The position numbers and the translations under genes were made by a program. Under the pieces are notes generated by a model. It was not told where the DNA came from and searched no databases. It saw only the letters and a program-made list of their open reading frames with translations. Positions 7,869 to 56,172 of a stretch of 64,000 bases of DNA are shown here, piece by piece (position 1 is the stretch's first letter; each line of letters starts with the position of its first letter). The stretch is from positions 29,195 through 93,194 of the forward strand of contig VAYN01000011.1 in assembly GCA_005885405.1 (NCBI GenBank), written 5' to 3'. Origin of the DNA: Actinomycetota bacterium. Its GTDB lineage: Bacteria; Actinomycetota; Thermoleophilia; Solirubrobacterales; 70-9.

Positions 7869-8538
7869 TCGGACCGCAGCCTGGCAGCGGGGTGCCGTCG
7901 AGGGCGGTGGCCGGTTCGATCCCGCGGATGGAGTTAGTGAGGAAGACCTCGTCGGCATTGGGGAGGTCTTCGATGTGGATCGGCTGCTCTTGCGCGTCGA
8001 TGCCCGACTCGAGCGCGATGGCGAGAACGGCGGCGCGGGCGGTGCCGGGGAGGATGCGGCCGTCAGCGGGGGGTGTCCAGAGGGTCTCTTCGCGGACGGC
8101 GAAGATGTTCGCCCAGCCGGCCTCGAGCGCTTCGTCGCCGTCGCAGATCAGCTGACCCGCGCCGTCATCGGGGTGCTCCATCCCACGTCGATCGACCCAC
8201 TTGTGGGACCCACGGCCTCCCGGCACCGAGTGAGAGCACAACTCGGCGCCGCGCTCCGGGAAGACCGCCTCCGGCACGACCCCACCTGCAAGTAGGTCGT
8301 GCCGGAGGCGGTCTTCCCCGGGGACGCAGGTGAGGCGGAGCCGGCCGAGGGTGATTCCCTTTGCCGCGGCGAGCAGCTCTTCTCGGGCGCCCGCGGGGAG
8401 GTCGGTCTCGTAGACCTCGTCCAAGGTCCGGCGCAGGCGCGCCAGGTGTGCGTCGAGCTCGACCGGCTCGCCATTGACGACGAGGAGCGTCTCGAAAACG
8501 CCTTTGCTCGGGTTCGGCCGCCAGTCGTTCGTCGCCAC
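7762..8538 (-). CDS. pabC: Class IV aminotransferase, probable aminodeoxychorismate lyase
   Basis: A 258-residue fold-type IV PLP enzyme. Lys113 in GSHKWVDRRGM is the PLP lysine position; EAGWANIFAVREETLWTPP and ILPGTARAAVLA follow, as in PabC and branched-chain aminotransferases. Divergent neighbourhood with pabAB 30 bases away supports release of p-aminobenzoate from aminodeoxychorismate. A D-amino-acid or branched-chain transaminase role remains possible. Residues 74-94 are encoded by a near-perfect palindrome (8258-8318) that looks like an in-frame insertion after the LRLTCVPG strand. The C-terminus overlaps a tentative convergent gene. Confidence 0.8.
   Translation of the reverse strand: MATNDWRPNPSKGVFETLLVVNGEPVELDAHLARLRRTLDEVYETDLPAGAREELLAAAKGITLGRLRLTCVPGEDRLRHDLLAGGVVPEAVFPERGAELCSHSVPGGRGSHKWVDRRGMEHPDDGAGQLICDGDEALEAGWANIFAVREETLWTPPADGRILPGTARAAVLAIALESGIDAQEQPIHIEDLPNADEVFLTNSIRGIEPATALDGTPLPGCGPISRRLADALRRRWGLSDPAARKAAATVPKQSQLSH
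8258..8318. repeat. In-frame palindromic element in pabC (24-bp perfect arms)
   Basis: Arms at 8258-8281 and 8295-8318 are perfect reverse complements over 24 bp. The 13-base loop is CCACCTGCAAGTA. The element encodes PabC residues 74-94 without breaking the frame. The loop shares the last eight bases, as TGCARGTA, with the loop of the palindrome in pabAB at 9705-9763, although the arm sequences differ. This points to one family with a conserved centre. Confidence 0.85.
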
Positions 8539-8567: not shown

Positions 8568-10646
8568 ATGCGCTCCCTGCTGATCGACAACTACGACTCC
8601 TTCACCTGGAACCTCTTCCAGCTCCTGGCCGAGGTCAACGGCAGTGAGCCCTTGGTCGTGCGGAATGACGAGATGAGCTGGGAGGAGCTGGAGCGCCTCG
8701 GGTTCGACAACGTCGTCATCTCGCCGGGGCCAGGACGGCCGGAGCGGGCGGCGGACTTCGGCGTCTGCGCCGAGGTAATCCGCCGCTGCGAGAAGCCGTT
8801 GCTCGGCGTCTGCCTCGGGTTGCAGGGACTGGGCTGGGTGGAGGGGGGGAGGGTCGAGCGCGCACCGGAGCCGATGCACGGCCGCGTCGTCCCCGTCGAA
8901 CACGACGGCACAGGCCTCTTCGCCGGCATCCCCAGCCCCTTCCAGGCAACCCGCTACCACTCGCTGTCCCTAGCGCACCCCCTCCCCAGCACCCTCCGCG
9001 AGACAGCCACCGCCGACGGCGTCCCCATGGCCGTCGAACACCGCCATCGTCCCCAACACGCCGTCCAGTTCCACCCCGAGTCCGTGGCCACAGAGCACGG
9101 CGCCAAGCTCTTAGCCAACTTCCGCGACCTCACTTCTGACCCGGTCAGAGATCCCAGTGTCGAGTTTGTCGCCCATAGGGAGACAAACCCGACACGGCGA
9201 TCCTTGACCAAGCTGCAGGCCCGGAAGCTCGATGCGCATCCGGACCCTGAGGCCGCCTTTGTCGCTCTTTACGGCGCGAGCACCCATGCGTTCTGGCTCG
9301 ACAGCAGCCGCCCCGGCGCCCGCGGCCGCTTCTCCTTCATGGGCGATGCCTCGGGACCGCTCGCGGAGGTGATCCGCCATGAAGCCGGCGAGGGCGAGCC
9401 GCTCCTCGACCGTCTGCAGCGGCGTCTGGAGGCACTGCGGCCCGCCGAGTCGCCCGATCTCCCCTTCGAGTTCGACTGCGGCTTCGTCGGCTACCTCGGC
9501 TACGAGCTCAAGGCCGAGTGCGGCTACGCAACTCCTCATGACTCACCGCACCCCGACGCCGCTCTCATCTTCAGCGACCGCCTCGTCGCTTTTGACCACG
9601 AGCAGCAGCAGACCTACCTCCTCTGCCTCCACCGCCCAGAGGAAGAGCCCGCCGCCGAAGCCTGGCTCGAGGTTACGTCCGCTCGCCTATCCGCTATCGC
9701 CGCCGGAGGAGAGCCGGTAGTAGGTCCCACATTGCAGGTAGGACCTACTACCGGCTCTCCTCCCAGCGCGCTATCCCTCGCCCGCTCCCGCGACCAGTAC
9801 CTGGAGGACGTAGAGAGTTCGATCGACCACCTGCTCGCGGGCGACAGCTACGAGATCTGCCTCACGAACCAGGTCAGCGGCGAGATCGATGTCGACCCCC
9901 TGGACCTGTACCTGAGCCTTCGTCGTGCGAACCCCGCTCCTTTCGCCTCGTATCTGCGATTCGGCGACCTGGCCGTACTGAGCAGCTCCCCCGAGCGCTT
10001 CCTCCGCGTGAGCCGTGACGGCGAAGCCGAAGCCCGCCCGATCAAGGGCACCAGCCGCCGCGGCTCGACCCCCGACGAGGACGCAGTCCTCGCCGCCGCC
10101 CTCGCCGCCGACGAGAAGAACCGGGCCGAGAACCTGATGATCGTTGACCTGCTCCGCAACAACCTCGGCGCCGTCTGCGAAGTCGGCAGCGTCGAGGTGC
10201 CGGAGATGATGGCCGTTGAGAGCTACGAGACCGTGCACCAGCTCGTCTCCTCGGTCCGCGGCCGCCTGCGCCCCGGCGCCTGTGCGGCCGACGCCGTCCG
10301 CTCCTGCTTCCCGCCGGGCTCGATGACCGGCGCTCCGAAGCTGCGCACGACCGAGATCCTCGACGTGCTCGAGGGCGCCGCTCGCGGCGTCTACTCGGGC
10401 GCGATCGGCTGGTTCGGCCTCGGCGGCGCCGCTGACCTCTCGGTCGCGATCCGCACCATCGTCCTCGCCGAGGGCCGCGCCTCGATCGGCGCCGGCGGCG
10501 CGATCGTCCTCGACTCCGATCCCGAGCGCGAGTACGAGGAGATGCTGCTCAAGGCGGCCGCGGCGCTGCGGGCGATCGACCCCGCCGTCGAGCCGGCGTC
10601 TATATCCTTGGCCTTCCAGAGCGCCGCCGCGATCGCGCCGCGCTAG
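8568..10646 (+). CDS. pabAB: Aminodeoxychorismate synthase, fused PabA-PabB
   Basis: A 692-residue fusion that makes 4-amino-4-deoxychorismate from chorismate and glutamine for folate. Residues 1-187 are the glutamine amidotransferase: NYDSFTWNLF, nucleophile Cys82 in LLGVCLGLQG, and His169/Glu171 in QFHPESV. Residues about 220-680 are the chorismate-binding PabB part with SSPERFL, PIKGTSRRG, and GSMTGAPK near the C-terminus. The PIKGT motif favours PabB over TrpE. Two palindromes encode residues 192-214 (linker between the halves) and 380-399 (linker before the chorismate-binding core), both in frame. It is divergent from pabC. Confidence 0.9.
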   Translation: MRSLLIDNYDSFTWNLFQLLAEVNGSEPLVVRNDEMSWEELERLGFDNVVISPGPGRPERAADFGVCAEVIRRCEKPLLGVCLGLQGLGWVEGGRVERAPEPMHGRVVPVEHDGTGLFAGIPSPFQATRYHSLSLAHPLPSTLRETATADGVPMAVEHRHRPQHAVQFHPESVATEHGAKLLANFRDLTSDPVRDPSVEFVAHRETNPTRRSLTKLQARKLDAHPDPEAAFVALYGASTHAFWLDSSRPGARGRFSFMGDASGPLAEVIRHEAGEGEPLLDRLQRRLEALRPAESPDLPFEFDCGFVGYLGYELKAECGYATPHDSPHPDAALIFSDRLVAFDHEQQQTYLLCLHRPEEEPAAEAWLEVTSARLSAIAAGGEPVVGPTLQVGPTTGSPPSALSLARSRDQYLEDVESSIDHLLAGDSYEICLTNQVSGEIDVDPLDLYLSLRRANPAPFASYLRFGDLAVLSSSPERFLRVSRDGEAEARPIKGTSRRGSTPDEDAVLAAALAADEKNRAENLMIVDLLRNNLGAVCEVGSVEVPEMMAVESYETVHQLVSSVRGRLRPGACAADAVRSCFPPGSMTGAPKLRTTEILDVLEGAARGVYSGAIGWFGLGGAADLSVAIRTIVLAEGRASIGAGGAIVLDSDPEREYEEMLLKAAAALRAIDPAVEPASISLAFQSAAAIAPR
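9143..9209. repeat. Aged palindromic element in the PabA-PabB linker (28-bp arms)
   Basis: Bases 9143-9170 and 9182-9209 are reverse complements at 23 of 28 positions, around the loop GCCCATAGGGA. The frame stays open through it, and it encodes the linker between amidotransferase and synthase domains. The loop core CCATAGG also occurs in the loop of the 81-bp element at 46939-47019 and 52582-52662. The mismatches suggest an older insertion. Confidence 0.7.
9705..9763. repeat. In-frame palindromic element in pabAB (23-bp perfect arms)
   Basis: Arms at 9705-9727 and 9741-9763 are perfect reverse complements. The 13-base loop CACATTGCAGGTA matches the pabC element's loop at its last eight positions apart from one purine change. 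It encodes residues 380-399 of PabAB, a Gly/Pro/Thr-rich stretch not expected in PabB, located between structural parts of the chorismate-binding domain. Confidence 0.85.
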
Positions 10647-20722: not shown

Positions 20723-20823
20723 GGCCGCACCAATAGCGGCCCCCTCGAAAAAGGCAAACCCGTCGCGAGGCGGGGGCGCAAAGCCAGGGATCTCCCCGAG
20801 ATCGCCCAGCTACCGAAAGGAGG
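20723..20823 (+). ncRNA. Probable cyclic-di-GMP-I (GEMM-like) riboswitch
   Basis: The leader of the next gene contains GGCAAACC (20753-20760), a 6-bp stem closed by the GNRA tetraloop GCGA, and then GCGCAAAGCC (20776-20785), which matches the GEMM core GGCAAACC-stem-GNRA-stem-GGACGCAAAGCC. A second hairpin (GGGATCT/AGATCGCCC, about 20787-20808) and GCTACCGA follow. One deviation: the usually conserved A in GGACGC is G here. The ribosome site AAAGGAGG lies in the final loop between ACCG and CGGT, so ligand folding could control translation. A separate GGCCGC/GCGGCC hairpin precedes it at 20723-20741. Confidence 0.6.
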
Positions 20824-46001: not shown

Positions 46002-46910
46002 TTAACCGAAGGGGAGGGCGGTGACTTCGGCCGTAACGCCATCTTCACCTACGGCGAGCGTCGTTCCCGGCTCCGCCTCGCGGCGCAGGATCGCCAGCCC
46101 GATCGGCCCGAAGGCGGGGGAGACGGCGGCGCTGCCGACAGTGCCGACCTCTTTCTCGCCCAGCCGCAGCACCTCGCCGCCCTGCGCCGGGGCGCTGAGC
46201 CGCAGCCCCCGCAAGTGCCGGTTCGGCTTGCCCTTGTAATGGAGGCGGGCGACCGTCTCCTGGCCGATGTAACAGCCCTTGGTGAAGCTGACCGTCTGCT
46301 CGACGATGCCGGCCTCGGCGGGCATCGTCTCCGTTCCCATCTCGGCCCCGAAGCGCGGCTGCCCGGCCTCGATGCGGAGGATCTCCGCCGCCTCGGGGGA
46401 GACCTCGACGGCGCCGGCGCCGGTGAGGGTGGCATGAACGCGATCGCGGTCCGCGGCGGGAACGATCAAGTCGACGCCCCCGTCGGTGCGGAGCCTGGTG
46501 GCCTCGACCGCGCGGGCGATCTCGGTCGCGCGCGGACCGATCAGGGAGAGGAGGACGTATTCGTCGCTTGCGTCAGAGACCTCGACCTCGCGCCCGATCT
46601 TGTACATCTGCAGATGCCGCCGCGCCGCCTCGAACCCGGCCGGCTCGAGATCGAGCCAAAGCTCCGACCCCTCACTAGGCCGCAGGACCCGCAAGTCCGC
46701 CTGCATATGCCCCTTGCGATCCAGCAGCGCCGCATAGACCCAAGCACCCGGCTCCACCGCCTCGACGTCCTGGGTCAGCTGCCCCTGCAGGTACTCAGCA
46801 GCCTCCGACCCGCTGACGATCAGCAACCCACGCCCGGGCCACTCAACCAGCCCGCATTCCTCACGAAGCTGCCGGTACTGCGCATCAAGCTCGATCAAAG
46901 CCTCACTCAT
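46002..46910 (-). CDS. ygfZ: YgfZ/GcvT-like folate-binding protein
   Basis: 302 residues. The YgfZ signature K-G-C-Y-x-G-Q-E appears as TKGCYIGQETVARLHYKG at about residues 205-222, and the GcvT-like fold starts with EYLQGQLTQDVEAVEPG. YgfZ proteins bind tetrahydrofolate and help maintain Fe-S enzymes. The start ATG at 46910 is preferred; the frame extends further to 46967 but that extension is encoded by the palindromic repeat that lies upstream. Confidence 0.88.
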   Translation of the reverse strand: MSEALIELDAQYRQLREECGLVEWPGRGLLIVSGSEAAEYLQGQLTQDVEAVEPGAWVYAALLDRKGHMQADLRVLRPSEGSELWLDLEPAGFEAARRHLQMYKIGREVEVSDASDEYVLLSLIGPRATEIARAVEATRLRTDGGVDLIVPAADRDRVHATLTGAGAVEVSPEAAEILRIEAGQPRFGAEMGTETMPAEAGIVEQTVSFTKGCYIGQETVARLHYKGKPNRHLRGLRLSAPAQGGEVLRLGEKEVGTVGSAAVSPAFGPIGLAILRREAEPGTTLAVGEDGVTAEVTALPFG

Positions 46911-46918
46911 CCCCAAGA

Positions 46919-47041
46919 GTCTAGAAAGACGGATCAATGGGAGGGCGGGGGTGCCTCCTCCAGACACTCAGCATGAGCCATAGGCGAGCTGCGTCTGGAG
47001 GAGGAACCCCCGCCCTCCCACAACCCATCCGTCTTTTAGAC
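46919..47041. repeat. 81-bp palindromic element with extended outer arms, ygfZ-mntR intergenic copy
   Basis: The core (46939-47019) has 27-bp arms (46939-46965 and 46993-47019, one pair mismatched) around a 27-base loop. It is the reverse complement of the element in fbiC (52582-52662) at 79 of 81 positions, including the whole loop. Outside the core, 46925-46934 pairs with 47027-47036, and with a one-base bulge pairing reaches GTCTA at 46919 and TAGAC at 47041, which is part of a DtxR-type operator. The divergent ygfZ and mntR promoters must be within or beside it. Confidence 0.9.
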
Positions 47042-47071
47042 GTGTCAAACTCTTTTAGACGTGTCTAACTC
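47034..47071 (+). promoter_or_regulatory. Tandem DtxR/MntR-type operators at the mntR start
   Basis: Two adjacent 19-base direct repeats, TTTTAGACGTGTCWAACTC (47034-47052 and 47053-47071). Each contains a palindrome: TTAGAC-GT-GTCTAA is perfect in the second copy and has one change in the first. The form matches DtxR/MntR-family boxes, so autoregulation by the adjacent mntR product with Mn2+ is a sound inference. The second box covers the GTG start codon at 47061, which leaves little or no untranslated leader. Confidence 0.7.
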
Positions 47072-47498
47072 CCAAGCAATAGAGGACTACGCAAAGACGA
47101 TCTACTCGCTCTCCTGCGAGCGCGACGGCCTCGTCCTCAACGGCGAGGTCGCAGACCGCCTTGACGTAACTCCGGCGACGGCGACCTCGATGCTGAAACG
47201 ACTCGCCGACCTCGGCCTGGTCGAGTACTTCCCCTACAAGGGGGTCAGCCTCACCCCGGCGGGGGAGAAGGTCGCGCTCGAGGTGATCCGCCACCACCGC
47301 CTGATCGAGGCCTACCTCTCCGAGGCCCTGGGGATGCCCGAGGACCGCGTCCACGAGGAGGCTGAGGTGCTCGAGCACTACATCTCCGAGGAGCTCGAGG
47401 CGCTGATCGCCGCCAAGCTCGGCGAACCGCGCCACGACCCCCACGGCACGCCGATCCCGGGCCCCGACCTCGTCCCGCCCACGTGGGGGGCGCGGTGA
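47061..47498 (+). CDS. mntR: DtxR-family metal-dependent regulator, probable MntR
   Basis: 145 residues: QAIEDYAKTIYSL and the winged-helix recognition region VADRLDVTPATATSMLKRLA, DLGLVEYFPYKGVSLTPAGE, then the metal/dimer domain HHRLIEAYLSEALGMPEDRV with HEEAEVLEHYISEELEAL. The short form without an SH3-like domain fits MntR/TroR better than IdeR. The next gene is an Nramp transporter, translated with a GTGA overlap. It probably represses mntH when Mn is plentiful. The GTG start inside the operator suggests a leaderless mRNA. Confidence 0.85.
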   Translation: MSNSQAIEDYAKTIYSLSCERDGLVLNGEVADRLDVTPATATSMLKRLADLGLVEYFPYKGVSLTPAGEKVALEVIRHHRLIEAYLSEALGMPEDRVHEEAEVLEHYISEELEALIAAKLGEPRHDPHGTPIPGPDLVPPTWGAR

Positions 47499-51905: not shown

Positions 51906-54191
51906 GTGCGTCGGGTCACCTTCTCCCGCAACTTCACGCTCTCGCTGTCACGCACGTGCCAGTGCTACTGCAAGTACTGCGCCTTCGCCACGCACCAGGC
52001 GCATATCCACGCGCCGGAGGAGGTTGAACGGCAGCTTGATGAGGCGCTGAAACGGAATGCCAAGGAGCTCCTGGTTCTGACCGGGGAGCGACCTGAGGTG
52101 AACCCTGTGGTCGCCGAGCGCTTGAAGCTCTGGGGGCATGAGGACTTCACGTCCTACGTCGTCTGGGCCTGCGAACGGGCTCTGGAGCGGGGGATGCTGC
52201 CGCACACGAACCTCGGCGTGCTGGACAAGCGGGACCTGGCGCGGTTGCGAGAGGTGACGGCATCCCAGGGGCTGATGCTTGAGAGCACTGCCGAGCGGCT
52301 GATGGACACCGTCCACGCCGGTTCTCCCACCAAGCACCCTTCAGCCCGCCTCGCCACGATAGAAGCTGCGGGCGAACTGAAGATCCCGTTTACGACTGGG
52401 ATCCTCGTTGGTATCGGGGAGACGCCTGGGGAGCGGGTTGAGGCCCTGGAAGCGCTTGCCGCTAGCGACGCTCGGCACGGGCATATCCAGGAGGTGATCC
52501 TTCAGAACTTTGTGCCGCACCCGCGGTATTACGGGGCTGAGGTGGCTGAGATCGCGGATGAGGCTTCGCGTGAGCGTTGGGGGGAGGGCGGGGGTACCTC
52601 CTCCAGACGCAGCTCGCCTATGGCTCATGCTGAGTGTCTGGAGGAGGTACCCCCGCCCTCCCTGCCAGACTGGGCGAATCCTGTGGGTATCGACGAGATT
52701 GAGCTACTGATTTCGGAGTGCAAGCGCTTGATGCCCGACGTTGGGGTGCAGGTGCCGCCGAATCTCTCTGACTTCTGGCCTCAGTTGGTTGAGGCTGGCG
52801 CCACGGATCTGGGTGGGCTCAGTGCCAATGGGGATCACATCAGCCCTGAGGAGCCTTTTCCGTCGCCGCATCAGGTGCGGAAGGAGTTGGCCCCGAAGGG
52901 GTTTGCGCTGACGGAGCGCCTCTGCGTCTATCCGCAATACATGGACCCCGAGTGGATGGAGCAGGGGGTCCTGGATGTGATCAAGCTGAAGTACTGGAGC
53001 TTCATTCCGCGGAAGGGGTCTGGGCGCAAGTCCGAAGAGGTCATTGCTCCTGATCTTGCTCCGAAGGCGATTGCCAAGGGACGCGAGGGGCAGGAGCTCT
53101 CTGAGGATGAGTTGACTGCTCTCTTCGCCGAGACGCGGCCTGAGGTGATTGAGGAAATGCGGGTTGCTGCTGATGAGCTGCGGGCGGAGTTGGCTGGCGA
53201 CACCGTGACCTTCGTTGTCAACCGCAACATCAACTTCACCAACGTCTGTGTTGTCGGTTGCGCCTTCTGTGGGTTCGGCCAGGGGAAGCGGTCGCCTGAC
53301 GCTTATGAAGTGAGCGAGGCGGACTTCGCGGCGCGGATCGAAGACGCGGTTTCCTTCGGCGCGACCGAGCTCTGCATGCAGGGCGGCATCCATCCGGATC
53401 TCTCGCTTGAGGAGTACGGGCGTTGGTTGAGGCTGGCTAAGCAGACGGCGCCGCAGCTGCACCTGCACGCCTACTCGCCGATGGAGATCAACTGGGCCTG
53501 CGAGCGGTCGGGGAAGGAGCCGCGGGAGGTCTTTGAGTACCTGCTCGAGTGCGGGTTGGGGTCGACGCCGGGGACCGCGGCCGAGGTGCTGGACGACGGG
53601 GTCCGTCAGCGGATCTCGCCGAACAAGCTTCCCGCCGACCGCTGGGTGGAGATCATCGAGGCCTCCCACCGCGCCGGCCTGCGCTCGACCTCGACGGTGA
53701 TGTTCGGCCACATCGAGGAGCCGCGCGAGCTCGCCCGCCACATGAGGGTGATCCGCGCCCTGCAGGAACGGACCGGTGGCATCACTGAGTTCGTCCCGCT
53801 CAGCTTCATCCCCTTCAACACGATGCTGGGGCGGACCCACGGGATCGAGGAGATCTCGATGGGGGAGAACCTCAAGCACACCGCCGCCTTCCGCCTTGCC
53901 CTCGGGCGGACGATCCCGAACCTGCAGGCGAGCTGGGTGAAGATGGGCCTGGAGGGGGCAACGGAGGCGCTGCGCTGGGGCGTCAACGACCTCGGCGGCA
54001 CCCTGATGGAGGAGAACATCTCCCGCATGGCCGGCTCCCAGCACGGGGTCCGGCTCGAGCCCGAGCAGTTGGTCGCCGCCGCCCGGGCCGCCGGGCGGAA
54101 ACCGGCGCAGCGGACGACTCTGTACGAGATCATCGAGACGTATGCGAGCGATGGTCCTCGAGAGGCAGCGGCAGCCGCTCCGGCCGGCTGA
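51906..54191 (+). CDS. fbiC: FO synthase, fused CofG-CofH, with a 27-residue repeat insertion
   Basis: 761 residues with two radical-SAM domains. The first (CofG) has CX3CX2C as C18/C22/C25 in RTCQCYCKYCAF; the second (CofH) has C448/C452/C455 in TNVCVVGCAFCGF, followed by MQGGIHPDLSLEEYGRWL. Together they make the deazaflavin FO from tyrosine and a riboflavin precursor, the first step to F420. Residues 226-252 are encoded by the 81-bp palindromic element and sit at the end of the CofG barrel. Codon use in 51950-53300 is less GC-biased than in the last third. Start GTG 51906. Confidence 0.92.
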   Translation: MRRVTFSRNFTLSLSRTCQCYCKYCAFATHQAHIHAPEEVERQLDEALKRNAKELLVLTGERPEVNPVVAERLKLWGHEDFTSYVVWACERALERGMLPHTNLGVLDKRDLARLREVTASQGLMLESTAERLMDTVHAGSPTKHPSARLATIEAAGELKIPFTTGILVGIGETPGERVEALEALAASDARHGHIQEVILQNFVPHPRYYGAEVAEIADEASRERWGEGGGTSSRRSSPMAHAECLEEVPPPSLPDWANPVGIDEIELLISECKRLMPDVGVQVPPNLSDFWPQLVEAGATDLGGLSANGDHISPEEPFPSPHQVRKELAPKGFALTERLCVYPQYMDPEWMEQGVLDVIKLKYWSFIPRKGSGRKSEEVIAPDLAPKAIAKGREGQELSEDELTALFAETRPEVIEEMRVAADELRAELAGDTVTFVVNRNINFTNVCVVGCAFCGFGQGKRSPDAYEVSEADFAARIEDAVSFGATELCMQGGIHPDLSLEEYGRWLRLAKQTAPQLHLHAYSPMEINWACERSGKEPREVFEYLLECGLGSTPGTAAEVLDDGVRQRISPNKLPADRWVEIIEASHRAGLRSTSTVMFGHIEEPRELARHMRVIRALQERTGGITEFVPLSFIPFNTMLGRTHGIEEISMGENLKHTAAFRLALGRTIPNLQASWVKMGLEGATEALRWGVNDLGGTLMEENISRMAGSQHGVRLEPEQLVAAARAAGRKPAQRTTLYEIIETYASDGPREAAAAAPAG
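52582..52662. repeat. 81-bp palindromic element inserted in frame in fbiC
   Basis: Arms 52582-52608 and 52636-52662 are perfect 27-bp reverse complements; the 27-base loop (52609-52635) is the exact reverse complement of the loop of the intergenic element at 46966-46992. The full 81 bp equals 27 codons and encodes residues 226-252, beginning EGGGTSSRRSSP. In related FO synthases this position is a short connection, so I infer an insertion. Confidence 0.93.
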
Positions 54192-55368: not shown

Positions 55369-56172
55369 TTAGCGGAATAAGTCCTCGCCGGGGGGGCGAT
55401 GGAGGGCGGCGGCGCCGGGGCCGTCCTCCGCTTTCACGTACTGGCCGAGGCCGCGGACGATCGCGGCGGGGGTGTTCGACGTCTTGGTCCTGACGAGGTC
55501 GGCGGCGGCTGCGACCTCGTCGGCGATCGCGATCACGGTCGCCTGTAGCTCGCGGCCGCTCGAGTCCTCGCGGCCGCGCCAGTCATCCAGTGGTACGAGA
55601 CCGGCGCAGCCGACCGCCACCTCGGCCTGGCCTAGCCGCCACGCTCGACCGAAGCTGTCGGAGATCACGACCGCTGGGTGGGACAAGGGGTGGGGGTCGG
55701 CGGACAACAGCGGGGAGGGTCCGGCGACCCCCACCCCTTGTCCCTCGATCGCGGTTCGGAGTTCGGCGCGGATGGTTCGGGCGGAGTTGTCGGGGTCGGC
55801 TGGGAGTAGGCAGACGGTTCCGGCTTCGGGGAGATTTGAGCTGTCGATGCCGGCGTTGGCGCAGACGAAGCCGTGGTGGGTTTCGGTGATCAGGACCCGG
55901 TCCTCACGCAGCACCTCGCGGCTCTCGGAGAGGATCAGCTCCACGAGCTCAGCCTCCTTACCCAGCTTCTTTGCCAGCTCGATCGCCCTCTCGGATGGCT
56001 CTACGTCCTGTAGCCGCCGCACCTGTCCCTCGGCCTTGGAGACGATCTTCTGGGAGATTACGACGATGTCGTCGGGTTCCAGCTCGGCGCTCTCGGCGAT
56101 CAGCTCGCCGATCTTCATTCCCTTCGTGACCTCAGGCAGTCCCTCGACGGGGAGGACCCGGAGGTCGGTCAT
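55369..56172 (-). CDS. cofE: Coenzyme F420-0:L-glutamate ligase, with palindromic insertion
   Basis: 267 residues; only the CofE half is present, no FbiB C-terminal nitroreductase domain. VLPVEGLPEVTKGMKIGELI, DDIVVISQKIVSKAEGQVRR, ITETHHGFVCANAGIDSSNL and VVISDSFGRAWRLGQAEVAV are the usual ligase motifs binding GTP and metal. It adds glutamates to F420-0. ATGA overlap with cofC gives the start at 56172. Residues 143-165 (starting QGVGVAGPSPLL) are encoded by a palindrome and precede VVISDSFGR, where other CofE proteins are shorter. Confidence 0.88.
   Translation of the reverse strand: MTDLRVLPVEGLPEVTKGMKIGELIAESAELEPDDIVVISQKIVSKAEGQVRRLQDVEPSERAIELAKKLGKEAELVELILSESREVLREDRVLITETHHGFVCANAGIDSSNLPEAGTVCLLPADPDNSARTIRAELRTAIEGQGVGVAGPSPLLSADPHPLSHPAVVISDSFGRAWRLGQAEVAVGCAGLVPLDDWRGREDSSGRELQATVIAIADEVAAAADLVRTKTSNTPAAIVRGLGQYVKAEDGPGAAALHRPPGEDLFR
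55680..55744. repeat. In-frame palindromic element in cofE (25-bp arms)
   Basis: Arms 55680-55704 and 55720-55744 are reverse complements at 24 of 25 positions; loop CAACAGCGGGGAGGG (15 bases). It encodes CofE residues 143-165 without disturbing the frame. Arm and loop sequences differ from the other elements in the window, so kinship rests on architecture and position. Confidence 0.8.

What the first reader, a model, noticed from the sequence alone, without database searches (positions are those of the whole stretch)
52582..52662. 81-bp palindromic element inserted in frame inside fbiC, second copy between ygfZ and mntR
Seen directly: perfect 27-bp arms, 27-base loop; the same unit lies inverted at 46939-47019 with 79 of 81 identities. 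It adds exactly 27 codons to the F420 enzyme FbiC at a junction after the CofG barrel. Mobile palindromes that live inside coding genes are known mainly as Rickettsia palindromic elements; I know of no such element described in this group. The 27-27-27 design keeps the reading frame in either orientation.
Basis: partly seen in the sequence, partly recalled or inferred. Interest (0 to 1): 0.93.

Follow-up and report, generated by a model that had tools for sequence, protein, structure and literature searches.

The report
Hairpin repeats living inside bacterial genes
An uncultured actinobacterial lineage carries dozens of DNA hairpins per genome, many sitting in frame inside ordinary protein genes, whose two arms mutate quickly yet stay mirror images while the hairpin tips are shared across each genome, so they offer a natural test of how DNA palindromes spread and repair themselves.

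Summary
The 27-27-27 hairpin lies at 52582-52662 in fbiC, with an inverted 79/81-identical copy at 46939-47019. It is one member of a large superfamily. The window alone has five long hairpins: four in frame inside protein genes (pabC, pabB, fbiC, cofE) and one intergenic. A 464-kb sample of the genome holds 19 long hairpins (Markov control: 0). Every searched genome of the genus has copies; outside the family hits are few and marginal. Other in-frame hosts include NuoG, an Lhr-type helicase and probably cysteinyl-tRNA synthetase.

The novel part is how they evolve. Stems are near-perfect (98% of pairs) but hypervariable; 24 of 25 aligned pairs covary. At orthologous loci both arms change by the same amount, mostly faster than flanking DNA. 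Tips (loops) tend to be genome-specific: the same site can keep its arms and swap its loop (fbiC, NuoG, pabC). Intergenic copies sit just after stop codons in one preferred orientation.

No Y1 transposase (RAYT) occurs in 12 genus genomes, no reverse transcriptase in 10. REP/RPE end tags are absent. Mechanism (spread plus arm correction by template switching) is inferred.

The parts
52582..52662 (+). Type A hairpin element in fbiC: 5' arm 52582-52608, loop GCAGCTCGCCTATGGCTCATGCTGAGT 52609-52635, 3' arm 52636-52662; TGAGT strand is the coding strand
   Evidence: CM hit 83.2 bits with R2
51906..54191 (+). fbiC (761 aa, CofG-CofH fusion), host of the element; hairpin covers residues 226-252
   Evidence: Radical_SAM twice, CofH_C
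46938..47020 (-). Second type A copy, between ygfZ-like gene and mntR; site empty in relative L125 (net difference about 85 bp)
46002..46910 (-). ygfZ-like (GCV_T) gene left of the intergenic copy
47061..47498 (+). mntR-like gene right of the intergenic copy
55680..55744 (-). Type B hairpin element (arms 26 nt, loop AACAGCGGGGAGG on + strand) in frame inside cofE; absent at this site in L122, L124, L125, L126, L127 and L129 (net +60 against L125)
55369..56172 (-). cofE (F420-0:gamma-glutamyl ligase), host; the Pfam match is split in two stretches
8258..8318 (-). Type G hairpin (arms 24 nt, loop 13 nt) in frame inside pabC-like aminotransferase class IV gene; G009 orthologue keeps the arms (one compensated change) but has another loop
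7762..8538 (-). pabC-like gene, host; Aminotran_4 match split in two stretches
9705..9763 (+). Type G hairpin (arms 23 nt, loop CACATTGCAGGTA) in frame between Anth_synt_I_N and Chorismate_bind domains
8568..10646 (+). Fused GATase/anthranilate-synthase-like (pabA-pabB) gene, host

Best explanation
The 81-bp unit is one copy of a lineage-specific superfamily of dispersed long-stem hairpin elements (one family of Solirubrobacterales-type actinobacteria). SHOWN: a 20-33 bp near-perfect stem, in the main class a TGAGT bulge on one side, and a tip that is often a small hairpin; many copies per genome; copies in frame in protein genes, and otherwise often just past stop codons; arms differ between copies and between orthologous loci but change together; loops are more alike within a genome than between genomes. 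INFERRED: new copies arise when the whole hairpin is copied to a new place (fbiC and mntR copies, with the mntR site empty in a relative). GC-rich, stop-free arms encode Gly/Pro/Ser-rich linkers, so in-frame insertions at permissive loops and domain joints survive. Inside an established hairpin, replication template switching (quasi-palindrome correction) copies one arm onto the other, so changes appear on both sides at once and outer arms drift quickly without losing pairing. Tips are homogenised within a genome by conversion or re-insertion between copies. The enzyme that moves them is not identified and is not a RAYT.
For: Copies: 8 with the same tip class in the own genome, 10 of type B in the own genome including the Lhr copy, 12 of 12 genus genomes and 22 genomes of family f1 with covariance-model hits, only 2 marginal ones elsewhere in the order and 2 among 397 phylum-sampled genomes. 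Covariation: 18 of 27 pairs with double changes and no one-sided standard change in 8 own copies; 24 of 25 pairs, 232 double-changed cells, 98.1% paired in 31 copies, slid controls at about 50%. Concerted arms at orthologous loci: outer arms 36-86% identical, the two arms usually equally, against near flanks of mostly 75-88% and inner stem+loop of mostly 80-98%. Loop swap: fbiC own/G009 share the stem CGGGGGTACCTCCTCCAGAC but not the loop; NuoG G003 and G009 share stem GCCTGGGTCGGCGGAC but have 59- and 14-nt loops; pabC likewise, with a compensated change; loop identity 0.70 within versus 0.48 between genomes. Mobility: fbiC and mntR copies 79/81 identical, mntR site empty in L125. Hosts: CofE, PabC, PabB, Lhr, GlcD/GlcF-like, NuoG, PHP-glycosyltransferase, probable CysS. 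Template switching creating and maintaining perfect hairpins is a published mechanism (PMC8794818).
Against: No transposase or other mover was found; no target-site duplication could be read; net insert lengths (48, 60, about 85 nt for 81-, 65- and 81-nt hairpins) are not clean. Mismatch types are strand-asymmetric (G.T 57 against A.C 18 on the ACTCA strand), which plain template switching does not predict and which suggests that folding of one strand matters. The orientation bias after stop codons (41 to 11) suggests a host-side role not covered by this account. Hairpins were collected partly by a stem-seeking search, which inflates the paired percentage (though not the covariation). Within-genome loop similarity is partly shared ancestry of recent copies.
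Confidence: 0.6

Rival explanations
1. Structured-RNA rival: the hairpins are terminator-like or 3'-end stabilising RNA structures of this lineage, kept perfect by selection on RNA folding; intragenic copies are strays.
For: Intergenic copies lie mostly 0-30 nt after a stop codon, TGAGT strand sense in 41 of 52; convergent gene pairs are common; CTTCGG-type tips on the TGAGT strand.
Against: No T-run follows the stem. Mismatches show that the ACTCA strand, antisense to the upstream gene, is the better-folding one. Several copies are in frame inside genes. Purifying selection on structure should slow the arms, but they are mostly faster than the flanks. No Rfam family reaches its threshold for these hairpins.
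Confidence: 0.2
2. They are REP/REPIN-type elements moved by a RAYT (Y1 HUH transposase).
For: Palindromic, dispersed, extragenic bias, inverted pairs, genome-specific sequences.
Against: No PF01797 match in any of the 12 genus genomes although the control genomes ring; GTAG tag in 5 of 62 and CGTC in 2 of 62 at either foot; much longer stems and variable, not conserved, outer stems.
Confidence: 0.06
3. They are MITEs of a DDE or other transposon whose terminal inverted repeats are the arms.
For: Inverted termini, short size, dispersed; paired A'+E and A'+D hairpins flank about 600- or 100-bp segments, one carrying a GrpB-like ORF.
Against: The outermost bases vary most and the centre least, the reverse of what a TIR-recognising transposase needs; no target-site duplication seen.
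Confidence: 0.08
4. Assembly artefact or chance palindromes of GC-rich DNA.
For: Some copies in G004 sit at contig ends.
Against: 0 in Markov controls, orthologous positions in independent MAGs, covariance models, oriented location.
Confidence: 0.01

Closest known systems
Rickettsia palindromic elements (RPEs)
   Same: Palindromic repeats in frame inside unrelated protein genes and between genes, without an encoded transposase (PMC10969869, PMC6649704).
   Different: Another phylum; no CGTC end tag, which PMC3733652 reports for R. conorii RPEs; RPEs are reported to lose repeat identity with time (PMC6649704), whereas here the arms keep pairing while they diverge; loops rather than stems are shared within a genome.
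REP/REPIN repeats with RAYT transposases (GTAG and CGTC superfamilies)
   Same: Extragenic bias, inverted pairs, genome-specific families, some intragenic copies (PMC3733652).
   Different: Stems 20-33 bp instead of 20-40 bp whole elements; no GTAG/CGTC tag; no RAYT in the genus.
Coding palindromes in Nematomorpha mitochondrial genes
   Same: Perfect inverted repeats inside working protein genes with concerted arms; template switching proposed (PMC6649704).
   Different: There the arms are the host's own conserved coding sequence and may be up to 284 bp; here they are dispersed repeats with a shared tip.
Mitochondrial repetitive hairpin elements (RHE) and double-hairpin elements
   Same: Small GC-rich mobile hairpins without a known enzyme (PMC2800124).
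   Different: Sponge RHEs have conserved stems and variable loops, the reverse of the pattern here.
Template-switch-maintained hairpins
   Same: Instantaneous compensatory changes that keep stems perfect (PMC8794818).
   Different: That work treats RNA genes and short stems; here a dispersed element shows the same pattern also inside coding DNA.

Membership tests
Rickettsia palindromic elements | palindromic, in frame in unrelated protein genes | tested here: met
Rickettsia palindromic elements | CGTC tetranucleotide at one end (PMC3733652) | tested here: not met
   about 2 of 62 at either foot
Rickettsia palindromic elements | sequence similarity to RPE families | not tested
   no RPE consensus was held; host phylum differs
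REP/RAYT | GTAG tag at hairpin foot | tested here: not met
   5 of 62
REP/RAYT | RAYT (Y1_Tnp, PF01797) in the genome | tested here: not met
   0 of 12 genus genomes; MAGs 78-100% complete
REP/RAYT | extragenic location near gene ends, inverted pairs | tested here: met
MITE | conserved terminal inverted repeats | tested here: not met
   outer arms are the most variable part
MITE | target-site duplication | tested here: inconclusive
   empty sites in L125 and others too diverged to read the junction
Intrinsic terminator | stem followed by a T-run on the sense strand | tested here: not met
   one T at 56%, then no T excess
Intrinsic terminator | position just after stop codon, fixed orientation | tested here: met
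   41 against 11, p 4e-5
Known Rfam RNA family | match at or above gathering score | tested here: not met
   only sub-threshold miRNA-like hits on the hairpins

The most novel reading that the evidence does not exclude
The mobile unit is the hairpin tip, not the whole palindrome. A short tip (inner stem plus loop, 13-77 nt) homes into or is converted between hairpin ends across a genome, while the stem below it is rebuilt from local DNA by fold-back copying of one strand (the ACTCA strand). Each locus then keeps its own mirrored, fast-drifting stem and each genome its own tip. This would be a tip-homing, self-rebuilding hairpin element with no counterpart known to me.
Probability: 0.25. Interest if true: 0.93.

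Novelty: new variant of a known kind. Interest (0 to 1): 0.78.

Why it matters
Protein-inserted palindromes in bacteria are known mainly from Rickettsia, where they are reported to decay. Here a GC-rich actinobacterial lineage carries an estimated several dozen or more per genome, some still being copied or replaced, in genes such as NuoG and a probable CysS. Orthologous copies in at least ten related genomes record arm changes directly, so the proposal that DNA template switching, rather than slow compensatory mutation, keeps hairpins perfect becomes testable in coding DNA with known flanks as clocks. The loop-swap pattern and the strand-asymmetric mismatches are features I know of in no described element.

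Tried and rejected
Rfam on the hairpins (only sub-threshold miRNA hits, chance from a long stem). RAYT/Y1 transposase (absent in the genus). Reverse transcriptase PF00078 as mover (absent in own genome, in 2 of 12 only). Viral contigs with two exact tip patterns (0 hits). Clean insertion with target duplication (not readable). GTAG/CGTC foot tags. The idea that arms are simply inverted copies of the target: not supported as a general rule because arms of unrelated loci share a G-rich pattern, but not excluded for outer parts. Papers on Thermoleophilia or Solirubrobacter palindromes: nothing relevant in the held library.

Full report
What was claimed and what is there. The hairpin at 52582-52662 is real: perfect 27-nt arms, 27-nt loop, in frame in a 761-residue FbiC. 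The copy at 46939-47019 is inverted and differs at two positions, both in one base pair. The 23-nt arm is expected 0.01 times by chance in the window at up to three mismatches.

It is one of a superfamily. The own genome (2.6 Mb, 30 contigs) has eight copies with this tip or a variant of it; six have the 27-nt loop letter for letter, with five clearly different arm sequences among them. A covariance model from these finds further hairpins with other tips in the own genome, and hits in 16 of 121 genomes of the relatives search. A second model from 31 copies of several genomes finds hits in all 12 genus genomes, in 22 genomes of the family in all, in two marginal cases elsewhere in the order and in two genomes outside the family among 397 drawn from the phylum. 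In 464 kb of own sequence 19 hairpins with a score of at least 16 occur and none in fourth-order Markov sequences. Scaled by hand, this is several dozen to about a hundred per genome; not all 19 belong to the superfamily.

They live in genes. The window itself has four in-frame hairpins: pabC (8258-8318), pabB-like (9705-9763), fbiC and cofE (55680-55744), and one intergenic copy. In cofE and pabC the Pfam domain match is split in two stretches, and in an Lhr-type helicase the insert lies inside the DEAD match just before IQRIGLSATQ. Others sit in NuoG, a GlcD/GlcF-like protein, a PHP-glycosyltransferase and a protein with the DDFNTP motif of cysteinyl-tRNA synthetase (family by inspection only). 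The inserts read as Gly/Pro/Ser-rich peptides. Genic hairpins are 59, 61, 65, 69, 70, 81 and 113 nt long, so 81 nt is not a frame-keeping design.

The FbiC gap is not clean. Hairpin-less relatives have a 14-residue linker where the query has 30, a net gain of 16 codons. Relatives L125, L127 and L131 carry other hairpins at this very place; the L125 and L127 loops contain the type B tip in opposite orientations. The mntR site is empty in L125 (about 85 bp shorter) and the cofE site is empty in six relatives (+60 nt against L125). Junctions are too diverged to show a target duplication.

Arms evolve together. In the eight own copies 18 of 27 pairs have double changes and none a one-sided standard change. 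In 31 copies from several genomes 24 of 25 pairs covary, with 232 double-changed cells and 98.1% paired, against about 50% when the partner is slid by one to three bases. The copies were collected with the help of a stem-seeking search, which inflates the paired fraction but cannot create covariation. At orthologous loci, identified by flanks of roughly 75-93% identity, the outer 14 bases of the two arms are usually equally diverged (36-86% identity), mostly below the flanks and below the inner stem plus loop.

Loops behave differently. Loop identity is 0.70 within and 0.48 between genomes, arm identity 0.60 and 0.54 (not corrected for recent shared ancestry). At single loci the stem can stay while the loop changes: fbiC in own and G009; NuoG in G003 (59-nt loop) and G009 (14-nt loop) with a shared stem, and yet other loops at the same NuoG site in G001, G002, G004, G006 and G011; pabC in own and G009. 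This is the most unusual finding. Recombination between copies or replacement of tips are both possible; I did not build trees.

Orientation and strand. Copies with a TGAGT bulge can be oriented. Of 52 intergenic copies within 60 nt of a stop codon, 41 have the TGAGT strand as the sense strand of the nearest gene (p 4e-5). Gene calls are from a simple codon-usage script trained on ten window genes. Yet mismatches in 2386 stem pairs are G.T 57, A.C 18, G.G 19, G.A 13, C.C 4 and C.T 1 when read on the ACTCA strand; 43 hairpins lean to the G-type and 6 to the C-type. The bias was seen first in one set and again in a second set of mostly new loci. So the strand that folds best is the antisense strand of the gene the element follows. 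I cannot explain this; a single-stranded DNA stage, an antisense transcript or fold-back copying of one nascent strand would fit. Copies are partly related, so the p values are optimistic.

Mover. No Y1 transposase in the genus and no reverse transcriptase in the own genome. Paired hairpins flank short segments, one with a GrpB-like ORF, but no transposase was recognised between them by inspection.

Reading. What is shown: a lineage-bound, dispersed, gene-inserted hairpin superfamily with concerted arms and genome-typed tips. What is inferred: spread by copying, and arm identity kept by replication template switching, a published mechanism (PMC8794818). It works like RPEs and REPs in its effects on genomes but fails their tested tags and the RAYT test, so I do not file it in either. 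The closest parallel for concerted coding palindromes is the Nematomorpha case, whose authors note that RPEs lose identity with time (PMC6649704).

Noticed in passing
L225:3983-4811 and L233:5998-6850 (own genome C6 and C30): Hairpin pairs of two different tip classes (A' and E) flank about 600 bp each, one segment holding a GrpB-like ORF and the other an ORF of unknown family, like small gene cassettes.
   Followed up: partly
L069:1506-1809, L071:1282-1624, L075:1503-1847: About 350-bp composite repeats: A' hairpin, about 70-110 bp spacer (in two of them itself a hairpin), D hairpin; 79-88% identical to each other.
   Followed up: partly
L093, L096, L099, L101 (genome G004): Hairpin plus a repeated, structured segment of about 250 bp (TTGTCCCCGCATAGCGGGGACAA etc.), in L099 closed by a second, inverted hairpin: a longer composite element.
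   Followed up: no
own genome C6:36588-36639 (L215) and C30:79585-79637 (L233:19585-19637): Two hairpins sharing GGCGTTCGTCCTTTC arms with unrelated loops, seemingly another repeat family.
   Followed up: no
L331-L339 (genus g11: G036, G042): A sister hairpin family with more conserved stems (GCCGTGGGGTCGGGTRGGCGTCTCCGGGAC) and a GGCTGAATGCC tip, also with the ACTCA bulge and mostly just after stop codons.
   Followed up: partly
46921-47045: The intergenic copy sits inside a further 10-bp inverted repeat (AAAGACGGAT ... ATCCGTCTTT) next to the mntR start.
   Followed up: no
20744-20818: c-di-GMP-I-GGC riboswitch above the Rfam gathering score on the + strand.
   Followed up: no
L004:2178-2321: c-di-AMP (ydaO/yuaA) riboswitch near an intergenic type A copy.
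   Followed up: no
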